DNA of 64,000 nucleotides from positions 1 to 64,000 of the forward strand of contig NZ_NIOF01000009.1 in assembly GCF_002205645.1 (NCBI RefSeq), in the 5' to 3' direction. Below the pieces are notes generated by a model. It was not told the origin of the DNA, searched no databases, and was given only the letters and a program-made list of their open reading frames with translations. The translations under genes were made by a program, and so were the position numbers. Origin of the DNA: Roseateles aquatilis (GTDB taxonomy: Bacteria; Pseudomonadota; Gammaproteobacteria; Burkholderiales; Burkholderiaceae_C). This document shows positions 3,933-21,403 of this stretch, piece by piece. The first letter of the stretch is position 1, and each line of letters starts with the position of its first letter.

Positions 3933-4074
3933 GCCGCCCAGACTAACGCCGGCGCCAGGGCGTCGATAGCGAGAGTTGCCCCGCTCCAGGACCGCTGTCC
4001 CGGGAATCCAACGCCGATCCCACGCCGATTGGCGGGACGACGCGGCGGGCCGGCCGCCTGGCGGATGCCCGGAG

Positions 4075-5421
4075 CTAGGGCGTCGTCGGTCCCGGGCCGC
4101 GCGCGGGATGCGGCGGCGTCGGAGCGCCGACCGGGCTCGAGCCCGCGCGTGCCAGGAACCCTGTCCTGGTGGCCGTCGCGATCACCAGCAGCATGCCCAG
4201 CCCCATCGTGCTGAGCATCAGCCCCAGCCGTCCGGCCTGGCCGGTGCCCCACCATGCGCCGATCCGCGGCAGATGGCTGTTCAGGGCGTCCAGCAGGCCG
4301 CCGAACACCCAGGTGGACAGCGGGATGGACATCGCGATGGCGAACGGGTTGAGTCCCCACGAGATCATGCGGCGGATGGCGAAGACGCGCCCCTGGATCT
4401 CGACCGGCGTCTCGGTCCGCCACAGCACCTGCGCGGCCGCGTTGACGACCGGATGCATGAAGCCGAACAGGAACGTGCCCAGCGCAAACCAGGGCAGCGT
4501 CTGGGCCAGTCCGAAGACAAGCACGCCGCAGGCGATGCCGCTGGCGCCCAGCAGCACGCCTCGCTCGAACGGCTTGATGCCGCCGGTGGCGGTCATCAGC
4601 ACGCCGCCCAGCACCAACCCACCGCTGCCGGTGGCCATGACCAGCCCCAAGGTCCCGGCGTCGGCGAACGACAGGACCAGCGGAGCATTGACGGTGACGA
4701 AGGTGGCGCAGCCCAGGTTGAGCACGGCGATGAACACCAGCAGGCGCAGCAGGTGCTTGCGGGCCCAGATCCAGCGCATCCCGAAGGCCGGATCCCCGAA
4801 CACCGCGCGCAGCACGGAGGTCTGGCCCGCCGACGCGGGCGGCGCGGGCAGCTGGATCGACAGCACGATGGCGATGCTGCACACGAACGACACCACGTTG
4901 AGCAGCAGGATCGGGGACAAGCCCGCCAGGTGGAAAAGCGCGGCGCCCACGATCGGGGCGGCGACGGTGGAGGTGGCTTGCACCGCTTCTTCCAGCCCGC
5001 TGATCCGGGCCAGGTGCGGGCCCGGCGTGATCAACGTGACGGTCGAGGTGAGCGCGGGCCAGCGCACGGTCTGGATCGAGGACAACAGCACCATCACCGC
5101 CGCCGCGCCCGTCACGGAGAAGCTGTCCAGGGCCACGGCCAGCAGCGCCGCGGCGACGACCAGCAGCGAGGCCGCGTCGCAGCTCACCAGCACCCTGCGC
5201 TTGGGCAGCCGGTCCACCAAGGCGCCGGAGAACGGCGACAGCAGCAGCGCCGGCAGCGCGGCCATGAGCGCCAGCGTGGCAAAGATCGTGTAGGAGCCGG
5301 TCTGCTGGAATACCCAGACATCGATGGCGAAGCTGGTGGCCGCCGCGCCCAGGCCGCTCAAGCCCTGCGCCAGCACGAAGGACACCGGGCGGATCAGCGG
5401 ACGATGGCGGTCGAGGATCAT
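4075..5421 (-). CDS. MFS exporter of the NRPS locus (MFS-3 / EntS-like)
   Basis: A 448-residue inner-membrane transporter of the major facilitator superfamily with about twelve hydrophobic segments. The loop motif GALVDRLPKRRVL between helices 2 and 3 matches the MFS signature. The closest architectures are MFS-3 exporters such as EntS that sit beside NRPS genes and export the product. The start is ATG 5421, which overlaps the TGA of the upstream NRPS gene (ATGA at 5418-5421); the longer open frame to 5751 lies entirely inside the NRPS gene and is discarded. As the last gene of the operon, export of the NRPS product is the likely role. Substrate and direction are inferred from context only. 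Confidence 0.85.
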   Translation of the reverse strand: MILDRHRPLIRPVSFVLAQGLSGLGAAATSFAIDVWVFQQTGSYTIFATLALMAALPALLLSPFSGALVDRLPKRRVLVSCDAASLLVVAAALLAVALDSFSVTGAAAVMVLLSSIQTVRWPALTSTVTLITPGPHLARISGLEEAVQATSTVAAPIVGAALFHLAGLSPILLLNVVSFVCSIAIVLSIQLPAPPASAGQTSVLRAVFGDPAFGMRWIWARKHLLRLLVFIAVLNLGCATFVTVNAPLVLSFADAGTLGLVMATGSGGLVLGGVLMTATGGIKPFERGVLLGASGIACGVLVFGLAQTLPWFALGTFLFGFMHPVVNAAAQVLWRTETPVEIQGRVFAIRRMISWGLNPFAIAMSIPLSTWVFGGLLDALNSHLPRIGAWWGTGQAGRLGLMLSTMGLGMLLVIATATRTGFLARAGSSPVGAPTPPHPARGPGPTTP

Positions 5422-8400
5422 GAGTGCCCTTGAATGGCGGTGGCTGGAACGGCCCGGCGCCGTGTGGACAGGATCTCCCCGATCTCCTGTCCCAGGCGGA
5501 CGGCATGGGCGCGCGACACGATGTCGTAATGCCCGGCGTCGTACCGGCGAACGCGCAGGGCGGCACCGTAGAGCGTCTCCCATCCCAGCGCCGCGCAGTG
5601 GCGCGTTTCGCGCGTGGCCACGAACAGATGGGGCACGAGGTCCAGCGCGGTGGGGGCATGCGCGGCCAGCCCTTTGACGATGCGTCGATGCGTGCGCGAC
5701 TGCCGCGCGTCCAGGTGCGGTGGCACCGGCGGCTCGCTGCCCGAAGGCCACTCGTACTGGGCACGCGTGTCGATGAGGAACAGGGCTTCCACCTGCTCAC
5801 CCTCGCGCGCCAGGAGGCGCGCCGCTTCGTGCGCGATGGTGCCTCCGGCCGACCATCCGCACAGCCGATAGGGCCCCTGGGGCTGCACATCGCGAATCAG
5901 CCGCACGTGCCGATCCGCCCATTGCGTGATCGACAGCTCCGGTGCCGAGCCTTCGTCCGGCGAACGGACGCAGAGCCCGTACACCGGCATGTCGGCGGGC
6001 AGGCCGGCCGCCAGATTGACGGCGTAGGCCACATCGCCGTCCGACCCGTGAATGCAGAACAGAGGGGGCTGCGCGCCGCCGCTGCGGACGGGGACCGCCT
6101 GCCACTCCGCGGCACTGCCTCCCCCCGCCGCCAGCGCCAACTGGCTCAGGATCGGCGTGGCGAGCACTTGCCTGAGGGTGAGCGACATCCCCAGGTCCGG
6201 GCGGCTGGACAGCGTGGCCACCAGACGAGCCGCCAGCAGCGAATGGCCGCCCAGGCTGAAGAAGTCGTCGTTGCGGCCGACCGTCCCGACGCCCAGCAGA
6301 TCTTGCCAAAGCGCGGCCATGGCCCGCTCATCGTCCGTGCGCGGCACCTCGTCATCCGTCCCGAGGTCCTTGGCGCGGTCTTGGCGCTCCAGGCGGGCCC
6401 GCTGGGCCTGTCCGTCCCGTTCCACCGACAGGGCTCGGCGGTCGAGCTTTCCGGACGGCGTCAGCGGCAGCCGGTCGAGCACCACGAAAGTGGCGGGCAG
6501 CATGTAATCCGGCAACCAGTCGGCGAGGGACTTGCGCATCGTCTCGGCACGGCAGTCCGCCGCGTCCGAGGGGACGACGCAGGCATGCAGCGTCGAGCTG
6601 CCCGTCGCGTCCGGCTCCGCCAGCACGGCGGCTTCGCGCACGTGTCCGGTGCGCAGCAGCGCCTGTTCGATCTCGCCCAACTCGATGCGGAAGCCGCGGA
6701 CCTTGACTTGGGCATCCAGCCGGCCGATGAAGGCGAGGCTGCCGTCATCGAGCCATCGGGCGCGGTCCCCGGTGTCGTACATGAGGGCGCCGGGCGGGCC
6801 GAAGGGGCAGGGGATGAACTTCCTGGCGGTCAGCTCTGGCTGCTTCAGATAACCCAGGGCGAGGCCCGCGCCGGCGATATGGAGCGTGCCCGGCACGCCC
6901 GGGGGGACGGGCCGCAGTTGCTCGTCGAGCAGGTGGATGGCGGTGTTGGCGATCGGCCGGCCGATGGGGATGGGCCGTTGCAGCGGCGCCAGCGGCTGCG
7001 TGTGAAGCGTGGCGTAGACGGTGGCCTCGGTGGGGCCGTAGCCGTTGACCACGGTGACGTCCAAGGGCGCCAGGGCGTCGTGCAGGCGCTTCTCGTCCAG
7101 CGGCTCCACGCCCAGCAACAGGCGCGAGGGCGGCACGATGCCCTGCGCGACGAGCGTCGGCAGCAGCCGGGCGATATGAGGTGGCAGATAGGCGGTGGAG
7201 ACGCCCTGCCGGGTCGCCCATTGCAGGAACGCGCGGGGATCCAGGCGGGCATCCTCGTCCGGCAGCGCGACGCACGCGCCGCTGCACAGCGGGAGCAGCC
7301 ACTCGAAGATGGAGACGTCGAAGCTGCAGGACGTCCACCAGGAGAAGCACTCGCGAGGACGGGACGGAAAGCGCGCGAGCCAGTCGTCCATCAGGTTGAC
7401 GACGGCGCCGGCGCCGACCAGCACGCCCTTGGGCGTGCCGGAGGATCCGGAGGTGTAGATGCAGTAGACGGGCGAGTCAGGGGTGGAGACCGGCCGCTGG
7501 AGCAACCGGATGGCCGGCTGGTCGAGGATCGCGTCGACAGGCAGGGCCTGCGCGCGGTGGGTGGCCCAGGCCGCGATAAGCGCGGACTGCGTCAGCACCA
7601 GCGTCGCGTCGGTCTCCGCGAGGATGTGGGCCACGCGCGCGGGCGGCAGCGCCGGGTCGAGCGGGACGAAGGCCGCGCCTACGCGCAGCACCGCCAGCAT
7701 GGCGGCAACGAGATCGGGGCCGCGCGCCAGGCACACCGGCACGAGATGGCCCGGCCCGATGCCGCGCTGCTGCAGGGCGCCGGCGATGCGCTCGACGCGG
7801 GCATCCAGTTCCGCATAACTCAACGCGCCTTCGGAGGACACCACCGCGCGCCGCTGGGGATGCTGCCGCACATGCCAATCGAACATGTCCTGCGGCGAGA
7901 CAAAGTCGCCCGACGCACGGGGGCTCCGACTGTCGACCTCGTCGGCCGGTCCGGTCGGCCATGCGGTATCCAGCAACGCGTGAACGCGCTGGCGGCACGA
8001 CCCGGTCGCCGTGTCGAGCAAGGCCAGGTAGTCATCGACGATCCGGGCGGCGTCGCCAGCGCTGAACATGTCGCTGCGGTACTCGACCACCAGGTGCATC
8101 GGCGTGTCCCGATCCTCGCCGCGGACCACGACGATCACGTTGATGTCGAACTTCGCCGAACCGTTGGGCAGCCCCTCCTCGACATCGACCGCCAGGCCCT
8201 CGAAATCGGACCGCAGCGGCAGCGCATCGTGAAAGGAGAAGGCGACGCGGAACGGCGATGCGCCGCGGGTGCGATGCGGGGTCTGCAGGCGCTGGATCAG
8301 CTCGGTCATCGGCACGCCGCCATGGGCGAGGGCGAACTGCACCCGCTCGCCGGTGCGCCGCACCAGCGCGTCGAAACCTTCGTCCCCATCGGCATCGAAG

Positions 8401-9635
8401 GGAATCATGACCGGGTTGACGAACATGCCCAGCGTCGACTGGTAGCGCAGCGACGGCCGGTTCGCGACCGAGGTGCCGATGATCAGACGGTCCTGGGCGC
8501 CGTGGCGCACGCACACCAGGCCGAACACGGCCAGCGCCAGCGTGAAGGGCGTGGAATTCAGGCTGGCCGCCGCCTGGAGCAGGCGCTGGCAGCGCGCCGC
8601 ACCCAGCGCCCGGCGCTCCTGGGCCCCTCGGTGGCTGCGCGGTCCCGCCGGCTGGCGGTGGGCGAAGGGCGGGGGCAGGGTCAGGAACGGCTCGACGTGG
8701 GTCCGCCAGGCCTGGACCTGCTGTTCGCAATGCTGCGATCGCAGCCAGTCGCGTTCCTCCCGGCAGAAGTCGCCGAAGCGCGCCTCGATGGCCGGGAGCT
8801 GGAGCGCACGGCCGCGGACCAACGCGTTGTAGCAGGCCTGCAGGTCCTGCAGCAGCACGCGGAAGGAATGCCCGTCATGGATGATGTGGTGCTCAGTGAT
8901 GAGCAACAGATGCTCGTCGTCGGCAAGGCGAAAGAGGTCCCAGCGGAACAGGGGCGGCCGTGCGAGGTCGAAGCGGCTCGCCAACACCTGGTCGATGCCT
9001 TCGCGCAGGGCTTCCTGCCGATGTTCCTCGTCGAGCATGCCGAGGTCGAGGAAGGACAACGCCGCGGGCCGGGCGGGCAACTCGTGCCGGTGCAGGCGGC
9101 CGTCCACGAGGGTGAACGAGGTGCGCAGGATCTCGTGGCGTTCCACGAGCTGGTCCATGGCCTCGCGCAGACAGGGCAGGCTCAGCGCGCCCCGCATGCT
9201 CAGCCGGGCGTGAAAACGATAGGCCAGCCAGGCATCGTCCAACTGGTCGAGAAACCAGACCAGCTCCTGGCTGCAGGACGCGAGGCTGTCGCCGGCGTTG
9301 TCGCCGCTTGGAGGCGGCGCCGCGGAGGGGCGGACATGGGCGTCGAGGGCCTTCCGGATCTGCCTCGCGTAGTCCGCGACGCGCGCATCCGGCGCGGCGA
9401 TCGGCAAGCGCAGCGTCGTGCCCAGGCGATCGCCGATGGCCAGCGCCGCGTGGATGGCGGTGATCGACGTGCCGCCGATCATCGACAGGCGGTCGTCTGC
9501 GTCCACGTGGGCCAGCCCCAGCAGCTCCGCCCAGGTGGCGGCCACCACCTGTTGAATGGCGTCGGCGCCGTTCGCGCAGGTTTCGCGCCCTTGCACCTGT
9601 CCCGTGGCGGGAGCTGTCGTCGCGCGATCGCTCAT
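5418..9635 (-). CDS. Nonribosomal peptide synthetase, PCP-C-A-PCP-TE
   Basis: A 1405-residue synthetase. An N-terminal carrier domain has GGTS with Ser57 in the phosphopantetheine position. A condensation domain (about 120-545) has HHIIHDG (residues 249-255). The adenylation domain (about 585-1070) has YTSGSSGTPKG, NGYGPTEATV, YDTGDR and SGKLDRR. A second carrier has LGGHSL (Ser1132), and a type I thioesterase has GWSAG (Ser1262), Asp1289 and His1369. The first carrier has no adenylation domain, so its acyl or aminoacyl group must come in trans, and the protein joins at most two units before release. Reading the ten specificity positions by eye against GrsA gives about D-V-F-Y-L-G-G-V-Y-K, which suggests a small hydrophobic amino acid (tentative). 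The start overlaps the upstream stop by ATGA. Confidence 0.96.
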   Translation of the reverse strand: MSDRATTAPATGQVQGRETCANGADAIQQVVAATWAELLGLAHVDADDRLSMIGGTSITAIHAALAIGDRLGTTLRLPIAAPDARVADYARQIRKALDAHVRPSAAPPPSGDNAGDSLASCSQELVWFLDQLDDAWLAYRFHARLSMRGALSLPCLREAMDQLVERHEILRTSFTLVDGRLHRHELPARPAALSFLDLGMLDEEHRQEALREGIDQVLASRFDLARPPLFRWDLFRLADDEHLLLITEHHIIHDGHSFRVLLQDLQACYNALVRGRALQLPAIEARFGDFCREERDWLRSQHCEQQVQAWRTHVEPFLTLPPPFAHRQPAGPRSHRGAQERRALGAARCQRLLQAAASLNSTPFTLALAVFGLVCVRHGAQDRLIIGTSVANRPSLRYQSTLGMFVNPVMIPFDADGDEGFDALVRRTGERVQFALAHGGVPMTELIQRLQTPHRTRGASPFRVAFSFHDALPLRSDFEGLAVDVEEGLPNGSAKFDINVIVVVRGEDRDTPMHLVVEYRSDMFSAGDAARIVDDYLALLDTATGSCRQRVHALLDTAWPTGPADEVDSRSPRASGDFVSPQDMFDWHVRQHPQRRAVVSSEGALSYAELDARVERIAGALQQRGIGPGHLVPVCLARGPDLVAAMLAVLRVGAAFVPLDPALPPARVAHILAETDATLVLTQSALIAAWATHRAQALPVDAILDQPAIRLLQRPVSTPDSPVYCIYTSGSSGTPKGVLVGAGAVVNLMDDWLARFPSRPRECFSWWTSCSFDVSIFEWLLPLCSGACVALPDEDARLDPRAFLQWATRQGVSTAYLPPHIARLLPTLVAQGIVPPSRLLLGVEPLDEKRLHDALAPLDVTVVNGYGPTEATVYATLHTQPLAPLQRPIPIGRPIANTAIHLLDEQLRPVPPGVPGTLHIAGAGLALGYLKQPELTARKFIPCPFGPPGALMYDTGDRARWLDDGSLAFIGRLDAQVKVRGFRIELGEIEQALLRTGHVREAAVLAEPDATGSSTLHACVVPSDAADCRAETMRKSLADWLPDYMLPATFVVLDRLPLTPSGKLDRRALSVERDGQAQRARLERQDRAKDLGTDDEVPRTDDERAMAALWQDLLGVGTVGRNDDFFSLGGHSLLAARLVATLSSRPDLGMSLTLRQVLATPILSQLALAAGGGSAAEWQAVPVRSGGAQPPLFCIHGSDGDVAYAVNLAAGLPADMPVYGLCVRSPDEGSAPELSITQWADRHVRLIRDVQPQGPYRLCGWSAGGTIAHEAARLLAREGEQVEALFLIDTRAQYEWPSGSEPPVPPHLDARQSRTHRRIVKGLAAHAPTALDLVPHLFVATRETRHCAALGWETLYGAALRVRRYDAGHYDIVSRAHAVRLGQEIGEILSTRRRAVPATAIQGHS

Positions 9636-10063
9636 GCCGAGGACGCCTGTCGGTTCTGAACGGCGGCGTGCCGGGGCGCGCTCGACGGCAGGCCGGCGCG
9701 CTGCTCCAGCAAGGTCTGGAACTGGCGGGCCGCGTTGGTCGCCCGGGCATTGCCGGCCAGCACCGCCACCTGGATGAACACCTCCCGGATCTCATCGGGG
9801 GACAGGCCCAATTGCAAGGCCGCCTTCAACTGGAAGTCCAGTTGCCCTTCGCAGCCGCCCAGCGTGCACAGGATGGCGAGCGTCATCAGATGGCGCGACT
9901 TCAGGTCGATCGCGGTCCGGCGGTAAGCGAACCCGTAAATGCTGTCGACCGTGTGGTCCACCAGATCCGGGAACATGGCCCGATAGGTGTGCTCGGCATG
10001 GTCCGTGATGCCTGGGCTGAACTGCTCCAGCAAGTCCGCGTTGCGTTGAATGGCGTTGGTCAT
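9632..10063 (-). CDS. Carboxymuconolactone decarboxylase-like (AhpD fold) protein
   Basis: A 143-residue all-helical protein resembling the CMD/AhpD family. The conserved core reads LKSRHLMTLAILCTLGGCEG, then QLKAALQLGLSPDEIREVF and an Ala/Asn-rich last helix (VLAGNARATNAAR). Family members are decarboxylases, hydroperoxide reductases or proteins of unknown role. The CxxC of redox-active AhpD is not present; two Cys lie five residues apart (CTLGGC), so peroxidase activity is not supported. It sits between the ATP-grasp and NRPS genes, 12 bases after the former and overlapping the latter by ATGA, so it is made with the pathway. A decarboxylation or isomerisation tailoring step is possible but unproven. 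Confidence 0.8.
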   Translation of the reverse strand: MTNAIQRNADLLEQFSPGITDHAEHTYRAMFPDLVDHTVDSIYGFAYRRTAIDLKSRHLMTLAILCTLGGCEGQLDFQLKAALQLGLSPDEIREVFIQVAVLAGNARATNAARQFQTLLEQRAGLPSSAPRHAAVQNRQASSA

Positions 10064-10075
10064 GGCGGGTTGGCT

Positions 10076-11428
10076 TCAGGAAATGGATGGCGGGGGCGCC
10101 TTGACCAGCGTGCCGGTGATGGCCATCGCCGAACTGACGGCCATGGCCACCTTGCGCTGCATCGGATTGCGTTCGATGCGGATCAGCGGCGCGGCGCAGC
10201 GCTCTCCGAAAACGAAGGGGTTGTAGGTGAAGCTTCCTGGGGTCGAGGCCACCGCGCCCTGTGCGTCGACATAGGCGAAAGGCAGTTGCGGCGAGCGCAG
10301 GTTCTCCTGCGCGATCCATTGGCCGCGCTCCTCGAAGGCGCGACCCAGGAGACCGCTCCAGTCGGCCTGGCTGCATTCGGCGCCCAGGTGCACATGCTCC
10401 GTGGACTTCGAGTGCGAGCGCTTGAGGACGAACAGCCCGCGCTCCGCTTCGAGCAGTGCCTGCAGCTCGTGGCCGCGCCCTCGAAAGCTCACTTCGCGGG
10501 GCCCGACAAAACGTGTCCACGGCACGTAGGCGGCGATCAGCGCGCGTTCGTCCTGGGACAGGGCGGGCGTGTGCGCCCGCGTGTCGCCCGGGTCGACGGC
10601 CTCGCTCAGCGACGCCAGGATCAACTTGCCGTCGACGCCGAGGTCCGCCGGGTCCGACATGACGCAGGTGCGGGTGTGCCGCGCGGCGGCCAGGGCAGCG
10701 ATGACCGGGGCCATGGCTTGCGGGGGATGGGTGAGCGCGCCGAAGCGCCAGATGAACTGATAGTCCCGCTCGCCGTCCGTCATCCATTGCGGTCCGGCCC
10801 GCAAATCGTCGGCCAGCACGACGCGGGCACGGCAACCGGGCACCTCGCGGTCGAGCGTCTCGGCCAGTCGATGCACCAGCGCCGCGTGATAAGGGCGGAA
10901 ATGCGGATAGGTGATGAGCGCCAGGTTGAAGACACGCTCATCGCATTGCTGTCGCAGCGAGCGCAGCAGTTCGCAAAGCACCGGAATGACAGGCGGGGCG
11001 TGCAATCGATCGTCGGGCAGCAGGAGGCGAAAGCGTTCCTGCACGTAGTCGACTTCGAAACACCCGCCGACGCCGGAATCGATGTTGAGCTCGAGGAGCT
11101 TCAATTGCCCGTCGACGAAGATACCGTCCGGTCGTGCCACGACCGGACGCCGCGGGCCATCTAGATAGGCGGCCACGAGGTCCCGCTGGTCCGGGCGCGC
11201 CCATCGCAGCGAGTCGCCGGTGGCGTGGGCCCAGCGACGCGCCAGCGTGAGCAGCCGGGGCAGGTCGCGACAGGTGTGTTCATACAGCGCTGCATCCACC
11301 TGCAGCGGCTCCACGGAGAACTCCCCGAGTCCGTTGCAAAAGCCGCGCTCATCCAGGCCGCGCCGCGTGTCGTTCCACCAGCCCGCATTCAGCGGCGAGC
11401 TGGCAGCCCATCCAGGAGTTGTCAGCAT
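10076..11428 (-). CDS. ATP-grasp-like ligase of the NRPS locus
   Basis: A 450-residue protein without a confident family name. Two stretches resemble ATP-grasp ligases in circularly permuted order: KLLELNIDSGVGG near residue 110-122, with an acidic metal-ligand-like ELN, and GLFVLKRSHSKSTEHVHLG near 335 followed by GQWIAQENL near 385, which look like the ATP-binding lysine strand and the hinge strand. Circularly permuted ATP-grasp enzymes join carboxylates to amines. The start is supported by GGGGAG just before ATG 11428. It lies 19 bases after the ferritin-like gene. It could make an amide-bonded building block for the trans-loaded first carrier of the NRPS; this is inference. Confidence 0.6.
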   Translation of the reverse strand: MLTTPGWAASSPLNAGWWNDTRRGLDERGFCNGLGEFSVEPLQVDAALYEHTCRDLPRLLTLARRWAHATGDSLRWARPDQRDLVAAYLDGPRRPVVARPDGIFVDGQLKLLELNIDSGVGGCFEVDYVQERFRLLLPDDRLHAPPVIPVLCELLRSLRQQCDERVFNLALITYPHFRPYHAALVHRLAETLDREVPGCRARVVLADDLRAGPQWMTDGERDYQFIWRFGALTHPPQAMAPVIAALAAARHTRTCVMSDPADLGVDGKLILASLSEAVDPGDTRAHTPALSQDERALIAAYVPWTRFVGPREVSFRGRGHELQALLEAERGLFVLKRSHSKSTEHVHLGAECSQADWSGLLGRAFEERGQWIAQENLRSPQLPFAYVDAQGAVASTPGSFTYNPFVFGERCAAPLIRIERNPMQRKVAMAVSSAMAITGTLVKAPPPSIS

Positions 11429-11447
11429 GAAGCTCCCCGTCGTGCCG

Positions 11448-12197
11448 TCAGGCGTGCGCGCCTTCGCGGCGTCGCCGTGCCGCGTCCAGGATCGTGGGGA
11501 CGTCCGCCTCCGACAGCATGAAAGCCTCGGTCAGCGTGCGACTGGCCGCGTCGTCCACCAGCAAGGCGTCCAGGGCTTGCAGCGTGTAGGTCAGATGGAA
11601 GACCTCGTCCCGGGAGATTCGTGCAAGCAGTGAATGGATGGCGTCCCGGTCCGGGCCGGGGTAGGTCTCCAGCAGGCAGAACCAATGCGTCAGGATGACG
11701 GCCGTGCGCAATTCGAGGACGTGCAGGATGGAGAGAAAGGCCACCAGATCGCCATTGGCCCATTGCTGGTAGGCGGCATAGGCGTCTCGCGCCAGCAATC
11801 CCTCGGGCGCTCCGGCGGGGCTCGGCGCGGGGCGGCCGGCGTATTGGGCGAATGCATTGCCGTGCCCCACTTCATCGAGTGCGTGTCGAGTCAGCAGCTT
11901 TGCGTATTCGCCGCGATAGTCGCGCAGGAAGTCTTCAATGAAGACGCCGCCCCAATACTCTGTCCACACGTATTCAGCCAGCTTCTCCTGCCTGAGCAAT
12001 GGATCGGCATAAACTGATGAAGTGGCGGCCAGCCGCTGCGGGCCCGCCCAGGCCAGGCGGGGGGAGACCTCGGCCAGCGTGGCGGCATATCGGCCGCGGA
12101 GGCAGGGCGCGCAGCCGCTCAGGCGCCGCAGGATGGCGTCGGGCGTGAGCGGAACGGCGGCGCGTTCCAGTTCCGATTGGGACGTCGCGGCGTTCAT
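11448..12197 (-). CDS. Ferritin-like di-metal protein, putative diiron oxygenase
   Basis: A 249-residue helical protein. The metal-ligand pattern of a ferritin-like four-helix bundle is visible: Glu80 or Glu88, then E109-V-G-H112 (ALDEVGHGNAF), Glu162 (LHVLELRT) and E198-V-F-H201 (SRDEVFHLTY). Enzymes with this pattern in peptide pathways often oxidise amines, desaturate or cleave C-C bonds. An unusual N-terminal CxxC (GCAPCLRGRY, Cys29 and Cys32) may bind a metal or a carrier protein. The ATG overlaps the stop of a 38-codon ORF (ATGA, 12194-12197), so translation is probably coupled. The sequence does not say what is oxidised. A heme-oxygenase-like diiron oxidase is an alternative assignment. 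Confidence 0.7.
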   Translation of the reverse strand: MNAATSQSELERAAVPLTPDAILRRLSGCAPCLRGRYAATLAEVSPRLAWAGPQRLAATSSVYADPLLRQEKLAEYVWTEYWGGVFIEDFLRDYRGEYAKLLTRHALDEVGHGNAFAQYAGRPAPSPAGAPEGLLARDAYAAYQQWANGDLVAFLSILHVLELRTAVILTHWFCLLETYPGPDRDAIHSLLARISRDEVFHLTYTLQALDALLVDDAASRTLTEAFMLSEADVPTILDAARRRREGAHA

Positions 12198-12310
12198 TCG
12201 GTTCCGCGCATTTCAATGAACGGAACGGCCCGGCCGGCAATGGCGGCGGGGCGTGGAATCGACTGAACGCGGAATGTCGGCCGCAATGGCCGATTGATTT
12301 CGATGAGCAT
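12194..12310 (-). CDS. 38-residue ORF translationally coupled to the ferritin-like gene
   Basis: An unannotated short ORF at the head of the NRPS operon. It has one of the clearest ribosome binding sites in the window (GGGAGGA, 12316-12322, five bases before ATG 12310), and its TGA overlaps the next ATG. The peptide begins MLIEINRPLRPTF, is rich in Arg and Pro (about six each), has no Cys, Ser/Thr cluster or signal peptide, and ends EMRGTE. About two thirds of its codons end in G or C, below the flanking genes. It could be a peptide substrate or carrier for the neighbouring enzymes, a small accessory subunit, or only a leader that loads ribosomes for the next gene. I do not recognise a family. 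Confidence 0.6.
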   Translation of the reverse strand: MLIEINRPLRPTFRVQSIPRPAAIAGRAVPFIEMRGTE

Positions 12311-12393
12311 TGGAATCCTCCCTTGCAATGACACCGACCGTCTGCGCGGCTGCGATGATTCATTGGTGGAGAGGATCGTCTTATGCGCTCAAT

Positions 12394-12427
12394 GAATTAG
12401 CAATCCTTGGAAATGTCGCATTGACAA
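12394..12427 (-). promoter_or_regulatory. Possible promoter of the NRPS operon
   Basis: The 144 bases between the phosphopantetheinyl transferase stop and the short ORF are clearly AT-richer than their surroundings and must hold any operon promoter. The best elements on the minus strand are TTGTCA (12422-12427) and TTGCTAAT with GCTAAT at 12396-12401, but their spacing of 20 is longer than usual, so an activator may be needed or the assignment is wrong. Confidence 0.25.
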
Positions 12428-12442
12428 AGAGGAATGCCGTGT

Positions 12443-12461
12443 TAATTGGATGAATCAATTA
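12443..12461. promoter_or_regulatory. Inverted repeat TAATTG-N7-CAATTA
   Basis: A perfect 6-bp inverted repeat with a 7-base spacer straddles the stop codon of the phosphopantetheinyl transferase gene and lies just upstream of the candidate promoter elements. Its AT-rich half sites in a GC-rich genome look like a transcription factor operator. As a hairpin it is too weak to be a terminator. It does not match Fur or LexA boxes by eye. Confidence 0.4.
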
Positions 12462-13159
12462 CGTCGCGCAATGAGCACTGCGCTGTAGACGCGTCGAGTG
12501 TCGAACGCGAAGCTCACGGACACTTCCAGGGGCCGCAACAGGTCGCCCAATGACGCCTCGACCGGAATGATCCGGAGCGCACCGTCCGATGCGGGTTCGA
12601 CCCGCGCGTCGGCGAAGTCCAGATACCGCCGGCACGACGGAAAAACGGCCTTGAAGAAGGCTTCCTTCAAGCCGAAGGCCACGACCTCGGGCGGGCAATG
12701 GAGAGGACACAGGTGGTCCTGCAGTTGCTTCAACTCGTTGGGGCCGCATATGGACCTGGCCACGTCGGGAGACAGCGAGGCATTGGCTTCGGCATCAATG
12801 CCGATGCCGATCCAATCGTGACGGCTGGTCACCGCGGCCGCGCAGTAGTCGGCGGTGTGAGTGATGCTGCCCATCAGCCCGGCGGGGAACAACGGCTCCC
12901 GGTGCGGACCGACGCCGATGGGGCCGGGGGACAGGCCCAGGCGCCGCATCGCCTCGCGCGCGCAATTGCGCCCCGCGGTGAATTCCCTGACGCGTTTGGC
13001 CACGGCGCCCTTCACGAAGGGAACCTCCTCAGGCAGCAAGCCGGTCTCCCACAGGCTCCCGGACTCCGCTTCCACGACCACGACCTCGGTCGGAAGCAAG
13101 CGATCGAACATCGTCGTCATGGGCGCGAGCATGCCCGAGGCCTCTTCGGGCGTCGACAT
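12455..13159 (-). CDS. 4'-phosphopantetheinyl transferase, EntD/Sfp type
   Basis: Transfers phosphopantetheine from CoA to the serine of carrier domains; here the obvious targets are Ser57 and Ser1132 of the neighbouring NRPS. EntD-like motifs are present: an N-terminal FTAGRNCAREAM segment, GSITHT, the magnesium-binding GIGIDAE and the FGLKEAFFKAVFP helix. The frame stays open up to a TTG at 13240, but that would add a non-conserved arm. ATG 13159 is used here; ATG 13132, 13120 or 13111 are also possible, giving about 220-234 residues, normal for EntD. It is on the same strand as the NRPS operon and 144 bases upstream of its first ORF. It could be co-transcribed or separate. Confidence 0.9.
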   Translation of the reverse strand: MSTPEEASGMLAPMTTMFDRLLPTEVVVVEAESGSLWETGLLPEEVPFVKGAVAKRVREFTAGRNCAREAMRRLGLSPGPIGVGPHREPLFPAGLMGSITHTADYCAAAVTSRHDWIGIGIDAEANASLSPDVARSICGPNELKQLQDHLCPLHCPPEVVAFGLKEAFFKAVFPSCRRYLDFADARVEPASDGALRIIPVEASLGDLLRPLEVSVSFAFDTRRVYSAVLIARRN

Positions 13160-13272
13160 CGGGGCGTCGGGTCGATCACCGGCACTGAACTCCCGCCGCC
13201 GCGTCCCGCGGCAGCGGCCCCGGGCTTCCGGCCCTGTCAACGGCCGCGAGCCCTGGGGATGTCAATCGGCGC

Positions 13273-20689: not shown

Positions 20690-20717
20690 AGCCAGCGCTT
20701 GTGGGCTGTCCCCGGCT

Positions 20718-21152
20718 TCAGAGGCGTCCCGAAAGGGACAGCAGGGCTTGAGCGACTGTCACGATGGGAATGTCGTTGAAGCTCTTCATCGACAGGAGAT
20801 CATCGTCACCCGACACGATCAACTCAGCGTGAGCTGCAAGCGCGCAAGCCAGTACATCGTCGTCATCGACATCGCGACAAGCCGAATGGGCCAGGCGACG
20901 AGCCGTGATCATGGTCGCGATCCTGCGGTAGTGGCCCACGATCTCCTCGGCCGATAGGCCGGTCGCGAGGACGTACTTGGCGAGTTTCTTCTTCGACAGG
21001 GTCGCGGCCAGTTCGTCGATCAGGATCCTGCTGGTGAAGAGTTGAACTTCGCGTTCGCTCACGGCTTCGATGACACGTGATGGCGTTCCTCCCCAGAGGA
21101 ATGCCGACACCAGCACGTTGGTGTCGACGACCCAACGTGCCCGGACCGTCAT
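20718..21152 (-). CDS. PIN-domain toxin (putative toxin, COG1569 type)
   Basis: A 144-residue PIN nuclease-like protein. The first acidic residue is in WVVDTNVLVSAFLWGG (Asp10), a conserved Glu follows in LIDELAATL, and the acidic cluster DVDDDDVLACALA then GDDDLLS completes the metal-binding set. PIN toxins of type II systems cleave RNA and are blocked by the partner protein. Its ATG overlaps the antitoxin stop by four bases. Codon use is slightly less GC-rich than neighbouring genes, which fits acquisition by transfer. Confidence 0.88.
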   Translation of the reverse strand: MTVRARWVVDTNVLVSAFLWGGTPSRVIEAVSEREVQLFTSRILIDELAATLSKKKLAKYVLATGLSAEEIVGHYRRIATMITARRLAHSACRDVDDDDVLACALAAHAELIVSGDDDLLSMKSFNDIPIVTVAQALLSLSGRL

Positions 21153-21403
21153 TTCTCGGCGTGACCCTTCGACCGGCGTTCGCTGCGGACTGCCTGAACC
21201 TCGGCTTGGATGTCCTTCATCGACAGGGGCTTCGCCCGCGCAGCCCTGCCGTGCGCGGCTCCGCCCAGCAGCACTTGCGCGGCCCGCCGTTCCATGGCGT
21301 CTTTCAGCAAGGCCCGGAGAGCCTTGGGGGTCAGCAAACCGGCCGCCATGACTTCGCGGGCAAAGCGGTCGGGCAAGTCCAGCTTGAATTCAACAGTGGT
21401 CAT
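21149..21403 (-). CDS. Antitoxin partner of the PIN toxin
   Basis: An 84-residue protein directly upstream of and overlapping the PIN toxin gene. The N-terminus (TTVEFKLDLPDRFAREVM) looks like the ribbon-helix-helix-like or short helical start of this antitoxin group, and the charged C-terminal half (KDIQAEVQAVRSERRSKG) would wrap the toxin. The family is not certain; assignment rests on size, order and overlap. Such antitoxins usually repress their own promoter, which would lie in 21404-21480. Confidence 0.8.
   Translation of the reverse strand: MTTVEFKLDLPDRFAREVMAAGLLTPKALRALLKDAMERRAAQVLLGGAAHGRAARAKPLSMKDIQAEVQAVRSERRSKGHAEK

What the first reader, a model, noticed from the sequence alone, without database searches (positions are those of the whole stretch)
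12194..12310. Unannotated 38-codon ORF with a strong ribosome binding site heads the NRPS operon
Seen: GGGAGGA five bases before the ATG, a TGA overlapping the next ATG by four bases, and a position at the head of an operon that also holds a ferritin-like di-metal protein, an ATP-grasp-like ligase and an NRPS. The Shine-Dalgarno is better than those of most large genes here. Inference: the peptide may be a ribosomally made substrate, scaffold or accessory subunit for the tailoring enzymes, which would make this a mixed ribosomal/nonribosomal pathway. The simpler alternative is a leader that feeds ribosomes to the coupled gene.
Basis: partly seen in the sequence, partly recalled or inferred. 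Interest (0 to 1): 0.8.

Follow-up and report, generated by a model that had tools for sequence, protein, structure and literature searches.

The report
Short leader-like ORF before diiron gene
A 38-residue reading frame with a strong ribosome-binding site sits just ahead of an iron-enzyme gene in a small peptide-making gene island; it may simply help ribosomes reach the next gene, though it could also be a ribosomally made substrate of that enzyme, which remains to be tested.

Summary
The ORF is as described, on the minus strand (12310→12194): ATG, GGGAGGA, and an ATGA overlap with a ferritin-like diiron gene. Such an overlap alone is ordinary (half of shuffles); with ATG and a 5-base SD match it arises in 1.1%. 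The ORF lies in an island (PPTase, ORF, diiron protein, ATP-grasp-like ligase, CMD, NRPS, MFS) between ychF and a histidine kinase, absent at that site in four of four same-genus genomes checked; the PPTase lies upstream on the same strand, so 'head of the operon' is unproven. Best reading (0.42): a translated coupling leader for the weakly initiated diiron gene. A ribosomal substrate (0.28) stays open: ferritin-like diiron genes in Burkholderiales, a cyanobacterium and rhizobia sit behind short peptide genes, two pairs of which are under purifying selection. But a model of the relatives not chosen by similarity to the window protein does not find it (E 0.2), and the peptides are unrelated. 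If a substrate, it would be a new variant of mixed pathways such as pheganomycin.

The parts
12194..12310 (-). 38-codon ORF (coupling leader, or candidate ribosomal substrate)
   Evidence: no Pfam or NCBIfam match; no relative in its own genome or on plasmids
12316..12322 (-). Shine-Dalgarno GGGAGGA of the ORF
   Evidence: with ATG and the ATGA overlap 1.1% of shuffles
12314..12377 (-). predicted hairpin: GATCCTCTC (12377-12369) pairs with GGGAGGATT (12322-12314), hiding the SD
   Evidence: z -3.14 for 12180-12455, 1 of 200 shuffles as good; SD unpaired probability 0.00 for transcripts starting 12520 to 12385; an 8-base partner arises in 145 of 2000 shuffles, so weak
12194..12197 (-). ATGA stop/start overlap (translational coupling)
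11448..12197 (-). ferritin-like diiron protein, 249 aa (D108-E109-x-x-H112, E162, D197-E198-x-x-H201)
   Evidence: ligand pattern shared by 6 of 6 aligned sequences; no Pfam match, no PDB sequence match up to E 1; closest finds L022/L023
10076..11428 (-). ATP-grasp-like ligase, 450 aa, probably GSP_synth / circularly permuted type
   Evidence: relatives L014, L015 in NRPS clusters; L016 relative matches PF03738 above cut-off; own sequence matches no Pfam family
9632..10063 (-). carboxymuconolactone decarboxylase (CMD) family protein
   Evidence: PF02627 E 3.9e-15
5418..9635 (-). NRPS, T-C-A-T-TE
   Evidence: PDB matches
4075..5421 (-). MFS transporter
   Evidence: PF07690
12455..13159 (-). 4'-phosphopantetheinyl transferase, upstream on the same strand, same island
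   Evidence: not between the flanking genes in 4 of 4 same-genus genomes

Best explanation
A coupling leader. Ribosomes load at the strong SD at 12316-12322, read 38 codons and restart at the ATGA on the diiron gene, whose own SD is weak, and so set its output; a hairpin over the upstream SD may make this adjustable. The peptide's sequence matters little. Shown: ORF, SD, overlap, weak downstream SD, island. Inferred: that the ORF is translated, that the next gene depends on it, and that the hairpin acts.
For: ATGA overlap; SD match 5 bases for the ORF, 3 for the diiron gene; strong SD with ATG in 1.1% of shuffles, so initiation is probably real; codon usage not gene-like; no relative of the peptide in its own genome or on plasmids; SD predicted fully paired in longer transcripts, fold z -3.14.
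Against: Ferritin-like diiron genes in L022-L026 and L050 have real peptide genes in this place. A partner for the SD of that length arises in 145 of 2000 shuffles, so the hairpin may be chance; no Rfam match. Absence of orthologues means lack of selection on the peptide is not shown.
Confidence: 0.42

Rival explanations
1. The product is the ribosomal partner of the diiron enzyme: the enzyme oxidises a residue of the peptide, or of an amino acid that the ATP-grasp ligase attaches to it; ligase and NRPS add a non-ribosomal part and the MFS protein exports the product.
For: Short peptide genes directly upstream of ferritin-like diiron genes in 6 of 6 loci read: L022, L023, L024, L025, L026, L050 (no control count of short ORFs was made in those genomes). 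L022/L023 peptides: dN 0.047, dS 0.553, three PGAF[MT]IRN repeats; L025/L026: dN 0.098, dS 0.942. L022 and L024 peptides share FxIRNH; 4 of 1000 shuffles align as well. Precedent for peptide, dimetal oxidase, ATP-grasp and MFS in one cluster: thiovarsolin (PMC6511847, section 19).
Against: Window peptide aligns with none of five peptides better than shuffles (162, 569, 808, 426 and 400 of 1000 as good). Enzyme link weak: 18-25% identity; found at 4.4e-4 per genome in 294 genomes, where two hits at 0.0012 and 0.0038 are to proteins that look unrelated. A model of all five relatives finds it at E 7.2e-5 among 2463 ORFs (hhalign 87%), but L022/L023 had been chosen by that similarity; a model of L024-L026 alone gives E 0.2, behind a chance ORF at 0.03, and hhalign 8%. 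ATP-grasp relatives in NRPS clusters L014 and L015 have no diiron gene. No island protein matched a peptidase family.
Confidence: 0.28
2. A small accessory subunit or chaperone of the diiron enzyme or the NRPS that is not itself modified.
For: Coupled translation at a fixed ratio; NRPS clusters often carry small accessory proteins (recalled).
Against: No Pfam or NCBIfam match, so no MbtH-type protein; codon usage.
Confidence: 0.12
3. Not translated to any effect: a chance ORF in the 5' leader of the diiron gene.
For: Some ORF of 20-90 codons ending in this ATGA occurs in 49.9% of shuffles; codon statistics.
Against: ATG with a 5-base SD match in only 1.1% of shuffles.
Confidence: 0.18

Closest known systems
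Translationally coupled leader ORFs of bacterial operons (recalled, no paper read)
   Same: Short ORF with strong SD, ATGA overlap, weak SD of the next gene.
   Different: Dependence of the next gene on the ORF is not shown here.
Thiovarsolin cluster (PMC6511847; section 19 and passages read)
   Same: Short precursor, dimetal oxidase, ATP-grasp ligase and MFS transporter; related clusters lie beside NRPS or PKS genes.
   Different: VarO is heme-oxygenase-like, not ferritin-like; YcaO and TfuA genes are required there and no island protein matches them in Pfam here; VarA has a repeated core. Deletion of varL or varP did not affect production there.
Pheganomycin pathway (seen only as passages in PMC6511847 and PMC8939145)
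   Same: An ATP-grasp ligase (PGM1) joins a non-proteinogenic amino acid to a ribosomal peptide; the pathway has an NRPS.
   Different: The window ligase has no Pfam match and its relative is of GSP_synth type; no amidinotransferase in the island by Pfam.
Pearlins / carrier peptides TglA, TmoA (PMC9303977, abstract and start of text)
   Same: A short ribosomal peptide could be a scaffold at whose C terminus an amino acid is built.
   Different: Loading there is by a PEARL; no island protein matches such a family.
AurF/CmlI-type ferritin-like diiron N-oxygenases (passages in PMC13108848)
   Same: Ferritin-like diiron ligand pattern; L022 and L023 proteins match PF11583 weakly, below cut-off.
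   Different: Arylamine substrates there; the window protein itself has no Pfam or PDB sequence match.
Mangotoxin (PMC13185094, start of abstract and passages) and fragin (PMC5878181, listing only)
   Same: Clusters in which dimetal oxidases act on amino acids (in part recalled).
   Different: No ribosomal peptide is known in them (recalled); they favour an amino-acid substrate for the diiron enzyme here.

Membership tests
Translational-coupling leader | stop/start overlap and weak downstream SD | tested here: met
Translational-coupling leader | downstream expression depends on reading the ORF, not on its sequence | not testable with these tools
   needs reporter fusions
RiPP with ferritin-like diiron enzyme (type of L022-L026) | short ORF with good SD directly upstream of the diiron gene | tested here: met
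RiPP with ferritin-like diiron enzyme (type of L022-L026) | peptide similar to the relatives' precursors | tested here: not met
   162, 569, 808, 426 and 400 of 1000 shuffles reach the scores
RiPP with ferritin-like diiron enzyme (type of L022-L026) | diiron enzyme of the same family | tested here: inconclusive
   found by the model that holds L022/L023, not by the model of L024-L026
RiPP with ferritin-like diiron enzyme (type of L022-L026) | JmjC_2 partner gene next | tested here: not met
   next genes are ATP-grasp-like, CMD, NRPS; the next gene in L025 is not JmjC_2 either
RiPP with ferritin-like diiron enzyme (type of L022-L026) | purifying selection on the peptide | not testable with these tools
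   no orthologue found
Pheganomycin-type ribosomal/nonribosomal hybrid | PGM1-like ATP-grasp ligase | tested here: inconclusive
   no Pfam match up to E 5; PGM1 itself was not compared
Pearlins | PEARL (lantibiotic dehydratase-like) ligase in the cluster | tested here: not met
   on the seven island genes
MbtH-like proteins | match to an MbtH model | tested here: not met
   0 families

The most novel reading that the evidence does not exclude
A mixed pathway in which a 38-residue ribosomal peptide is oxidised by a ferritin-like diiron enzyme, extended or capped by a GSP_synth-type ATP-grasp ligase, and joined to an NRPS product; with L022-L026, ferritin-like diiron enzymes would form a little-noticed class of RiPP-modifying oxygenases in three bacterial lineages.
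Probability: 0.15. Interest if true: 0.75.

Novelty: new member of a known kind. Interest (0 to 1): 0.35.

Why it matters
If only a leader, it is ordinary and explains how a weakly initiated enzyme gene is expressed. If a substrate, an NRPS cluster of ordinary look carries an unannotated ribosomal part, and ferritin-like diiron enzymes join the metal oxygenases that modify ribosomal peptides. In titles and starts of abstracts from searches (0 papers; 11 of 12 listed; 3 of 3; 10 of 30 listed; 8 of 8) I saw none on ferritin-like enzymes acting on RiPP precursors; only that library was searched. The cassettes in L022-L026 can be tested on their own.

Tried and rejected
Orthologues of the cluster. 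Diiron protein: 16 same-genus genomes (itself only), 250 and 399 same-family genomes in overlapping draws (itself only), 294 genomes of the family of G898 (5 at E 0.01 or better: L022/L017 and L023/L019 followed; L018 and L020 are in frames that look like a secretion-system protein and an acetyltransferase, recalled, so chance; L021 not examined), 249 of the phylum with profile A3 (itself only), genome contigs (31 pattern matches, 0 relatives), plasmids (0 of 72,556). ATP-grasp protein: 369 class genomes (itself only), 398 phylum genomes (11 at E 0.01 or better; besides itself only G898 is strong, nine weak ones not followed), genome contigs with A1 (204 stretches, 2 relatives), plasmids (0). 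The peptide itself was searched only in its own genome and plasmids. Viral contigs: two scans, 0 relatives.

The test with a model of L024-L026 alone and the nature of L018 and L020 weaken the enzyme link, so I lowered it to 0.28, raised the leader from 0.36 to 0.42, subunit 0.12, idle ORF 0.18, novel case from 0.22 to 0.15 and interest from 0.45 to 0.35.

Structure: the one AlphaFold job gave mean pLDDT 40.8 and was not used. Rfam: no match. An F-x(1,2)-[IM]-R pattern near the peptide's end (FIEMRG) recalls FxIRN, but alignment is not significant and I do not count it. A LysW-type carrier was considered since the peptide ends in Glu; it has no cysteine and no acidic end (LysW features recalled). 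A-domain code DVFYLGGVYK was read by eye with GrsA positions from memory; it hints at a branched aliphatic amino acid, untested. A 39-codon ORF lies between the NRPS and ATP-grasp genes of L014 (6992-7111); I saw no SD and did not pursue it.

Full report
Observation. The ORF is on the minus strand, 12310 to 12194: ATG, 38 codons, TGA, with GGGAGGA five bases before the start and an ATGA overlap with the next gene. The next gene cannot start far upstream, since its frame is open for only five more codons (254 against 249), and its own SD match is three bases. An ORF of 20-90 codons ending in that ATGA is unremarkable (49.9% of 5000 shuffles), but one with ATG and a 5-base SD match is not (1.1%). 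On the 238,677-base contig 23 of 167 predicted genes have such an SD at their first start; 21 of 235 short ATG ORFs outside genes have it (nested starts counted apart); 3 of these lie beside a gene start, this one included (a simple GC-frame prediction). Another of the three, 21149-21403, precedes a PIN-like gene (recalled) and may be a real antitoxin gene. Codon statistics do not favour coding: GC by codon position 0.63, 0.53, 0.66; -0.083 bit per codon, below 94% of 1595 gene windows and reached by 29% of 3810 intergenic frames; one antisense frame of the stretch scores 0.087.

Surroundings. Downstream on the same strand: ferritin-like diiron protein (11448-12197), ATP-grasp-like protein (10076-11428), CMD-family protein (9632-10063), NRPS T-C-A-T-TE (5418-9635), MFS transporter (4075-5421). 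Upstream on the same strand, 144 bases away, a phosphopantetheinyl transferase (12455 to about 13159). In four same-genus genomes the flanking ychF (94-97% identical) and histidine kinase (61-74%) genes are present with none of the seven cluster genes found between them (tblastn E 1e-3, 0 of 4; weak for the 38-residue peptide). In G001 the flanks are about 150 bases apart; in G005, G009 and G011 the gap is 10-15 kb with other genes. So the transferase is part of the island and the ORF may be internal to its operon.

RNA. The stretch 12180-12455 folds better than shuffles (z -3.14). GATCCTCTC (12377-12369) pairs with GGGAGGATT (12322-12314); the SD is predicted unpaired with probability 0.00 in transcripts starting at 12520 to 12385, and 0.36-0.43 in shorter ones. 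A partner of 8 bases arises in 145 of 2000 shuffles. Rfam has no match.

The diiron protein and its possible relatives. Pfam and PDB sequences give nothing for it. In 294 genomes of another Burkholderiales family two of one genus gave matches at E 4.4e-4 and 2.5e-3 per genome. Three more hits were weaker; two of them (0.0012, 0.0038) lie in frames that look unrelated, so the search was near its noise level. The G1219 protein (L022) in turn found four plasmid records, one Dolichospermum and three Rhizobium, at E 2e-20 or better. Six of six aligned sequences share the two DExxH motifs and the third-helix Glu. A model of the five relatives finds the window protein at E 7.2e-5 among 2463 ORFs, hhalign 87%. 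But L022 and L023 had been chosen by their similarity to the window. A model of L024-L026 alone finds L022/L023 at E 2e-55 or better, yet gives the window protein E 0.2, behind a chance ORF at 0.03; hhalign 8%, E 0.0043, against 0.66 for the reversed sequence. So the window protein is ferritin-like, but its place in this group is not shown.

What that group carries. In 6 of 6 loci read (L022-L026, L050) a short ORF lies about 40-300 bases upstream of the diiron gene; SD-like bases are visible for the five printed. L022 and L023: 89 residues with three PGAF[MT]IRN repeats, 81 of 89 identical, dN 0.047, dS 0.553. L024: 71 residues, LNGG then FAIRNHTLGRSSAQLNRSSAQLKLN. L025 and L026: 71 residues ending DRAFVAMNSPFDPVSQC[VA], dN 0.098, dS 0.942; L050 carries the same annotated peptide (WP_063473636.1) as L025. 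L022 and L024 peptides align over leader and core (4 of 1000 shuffles as good); L025 and L024 do not (433 of 1000). L022, L023 and L024 have a JmjC_2 gene after the diiron gene; L025 has a nucleotidyltransferase-like gene and phosphonate genes. Repeats and a double-glycine motif are typical of RiPP precursors (recalled). The window peptide aligns with none of the five (162 to 808 of 1000 shuffles as good).

Relatives of the ATP-grasp protein. G898 (L014; 27% identity over 403 residues) has it between two NRPS genes; Duganella lactea (L015) between an NRPS/FMN-dehydrogenase pair and a phosphopantetheinyl transferase; an archaeal-labelled MAG (L016) beside a GCS2-type ligase, and this copy matches PF03738 above cut-off. 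The model of the five diiron relatives has no hit in L014, L015 or L016. So this ligase occurs in NRPS pathways without such a diiron gene. Short ORFs exist near it, none convincing.

Mechanism. I favour a translated coupling leader (0.42): it needs only what the window shows. A ribosomal partner of the diiron enzyme (0.28) is kept alive by the peptide-linked diiron genes elsewhere and by precedent, not by direct evidence. A subunit (0.12) and an idle ORF (0.18) follow. Nothing here shows translation, modification, or a link to the NRPS product.

Comparison with the known. Mixed pathways exist: in thiovarsolin biosynthesis a precursor, a heme-oxygenase-like oxidase, an ATP-grasp ligase and an MFS protein are encoded together, and related clusters lie beside NRPS or PKS genes (PMC6511847, section 19); pheganomycin joins a non-proteinogenic amino acid to a ribosomal peptide by an ATP-grasp ligase (passages). 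A review separates heme-oxygenase-like from ferritin-like diiron enzymes and mentions ribosomal peptide modification for the former (passages). As a leader the ORF is a new member of a known kind; as a substrate it would be a new variant.

Noticed in passing
L022 7993-10430, L023 8759-11269, L024 8486-10971: RiPP-like cassette: precursor with FxIRN core (three repeats in L022/L023), ferritin-like diiron protein, JmjC_2 (PF08007) protein, in Burkholderiales and on a cyanobacterial plasmid.
   Followed up: partly
L025 4786-14743, L026 8619-10911, L050 2141-5666: Rhizobium plasmids: conserved 71-aa peptide, ferritin-like diiron protein and a nucleotidyltransferase-like gene; in L025 beside PEP mutase, phosphonopyruvate decarboxylase, TauD and AsnB genes, which suggests a pathway joining peptide and phosphonate.
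   Followed up: partly
window 3933-13272: The interval between ychF and the histidine kinase is a variable insertion site in this genus: about 150 bases in G001, other genes in G005, G009 and G011 (MFS and outer-membrane efflux genes in G005 and G011).
   Followed up: partly
window about 20715-21403, minus strand: 84-aa ORF overlapping by ATGA a gene whose start looks like a PIN domain (recalled): perhaps a VapBC-like toxin-antitoxin pair.
   Followed up: no
L014 102-13068: NRPS genes around the ATP-grasp-like gene; the second has a luciferase-like monooxygenase domain inserted in the adenylation domain.
   Followed up: no
L015 366-11793: Duganella lactea NRPS, FMN-dependent dehydrogenase, ATP-grasp-like protein and phosphopantetheinyl transferase in one cluster.
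   Followed up: no
L016 8358-11771: Archaeal-labelled MAG with GCS2-type ligase, GSP_synth-type ATP-grasp and amidohydrolase genes in a row.
   Followed up: no
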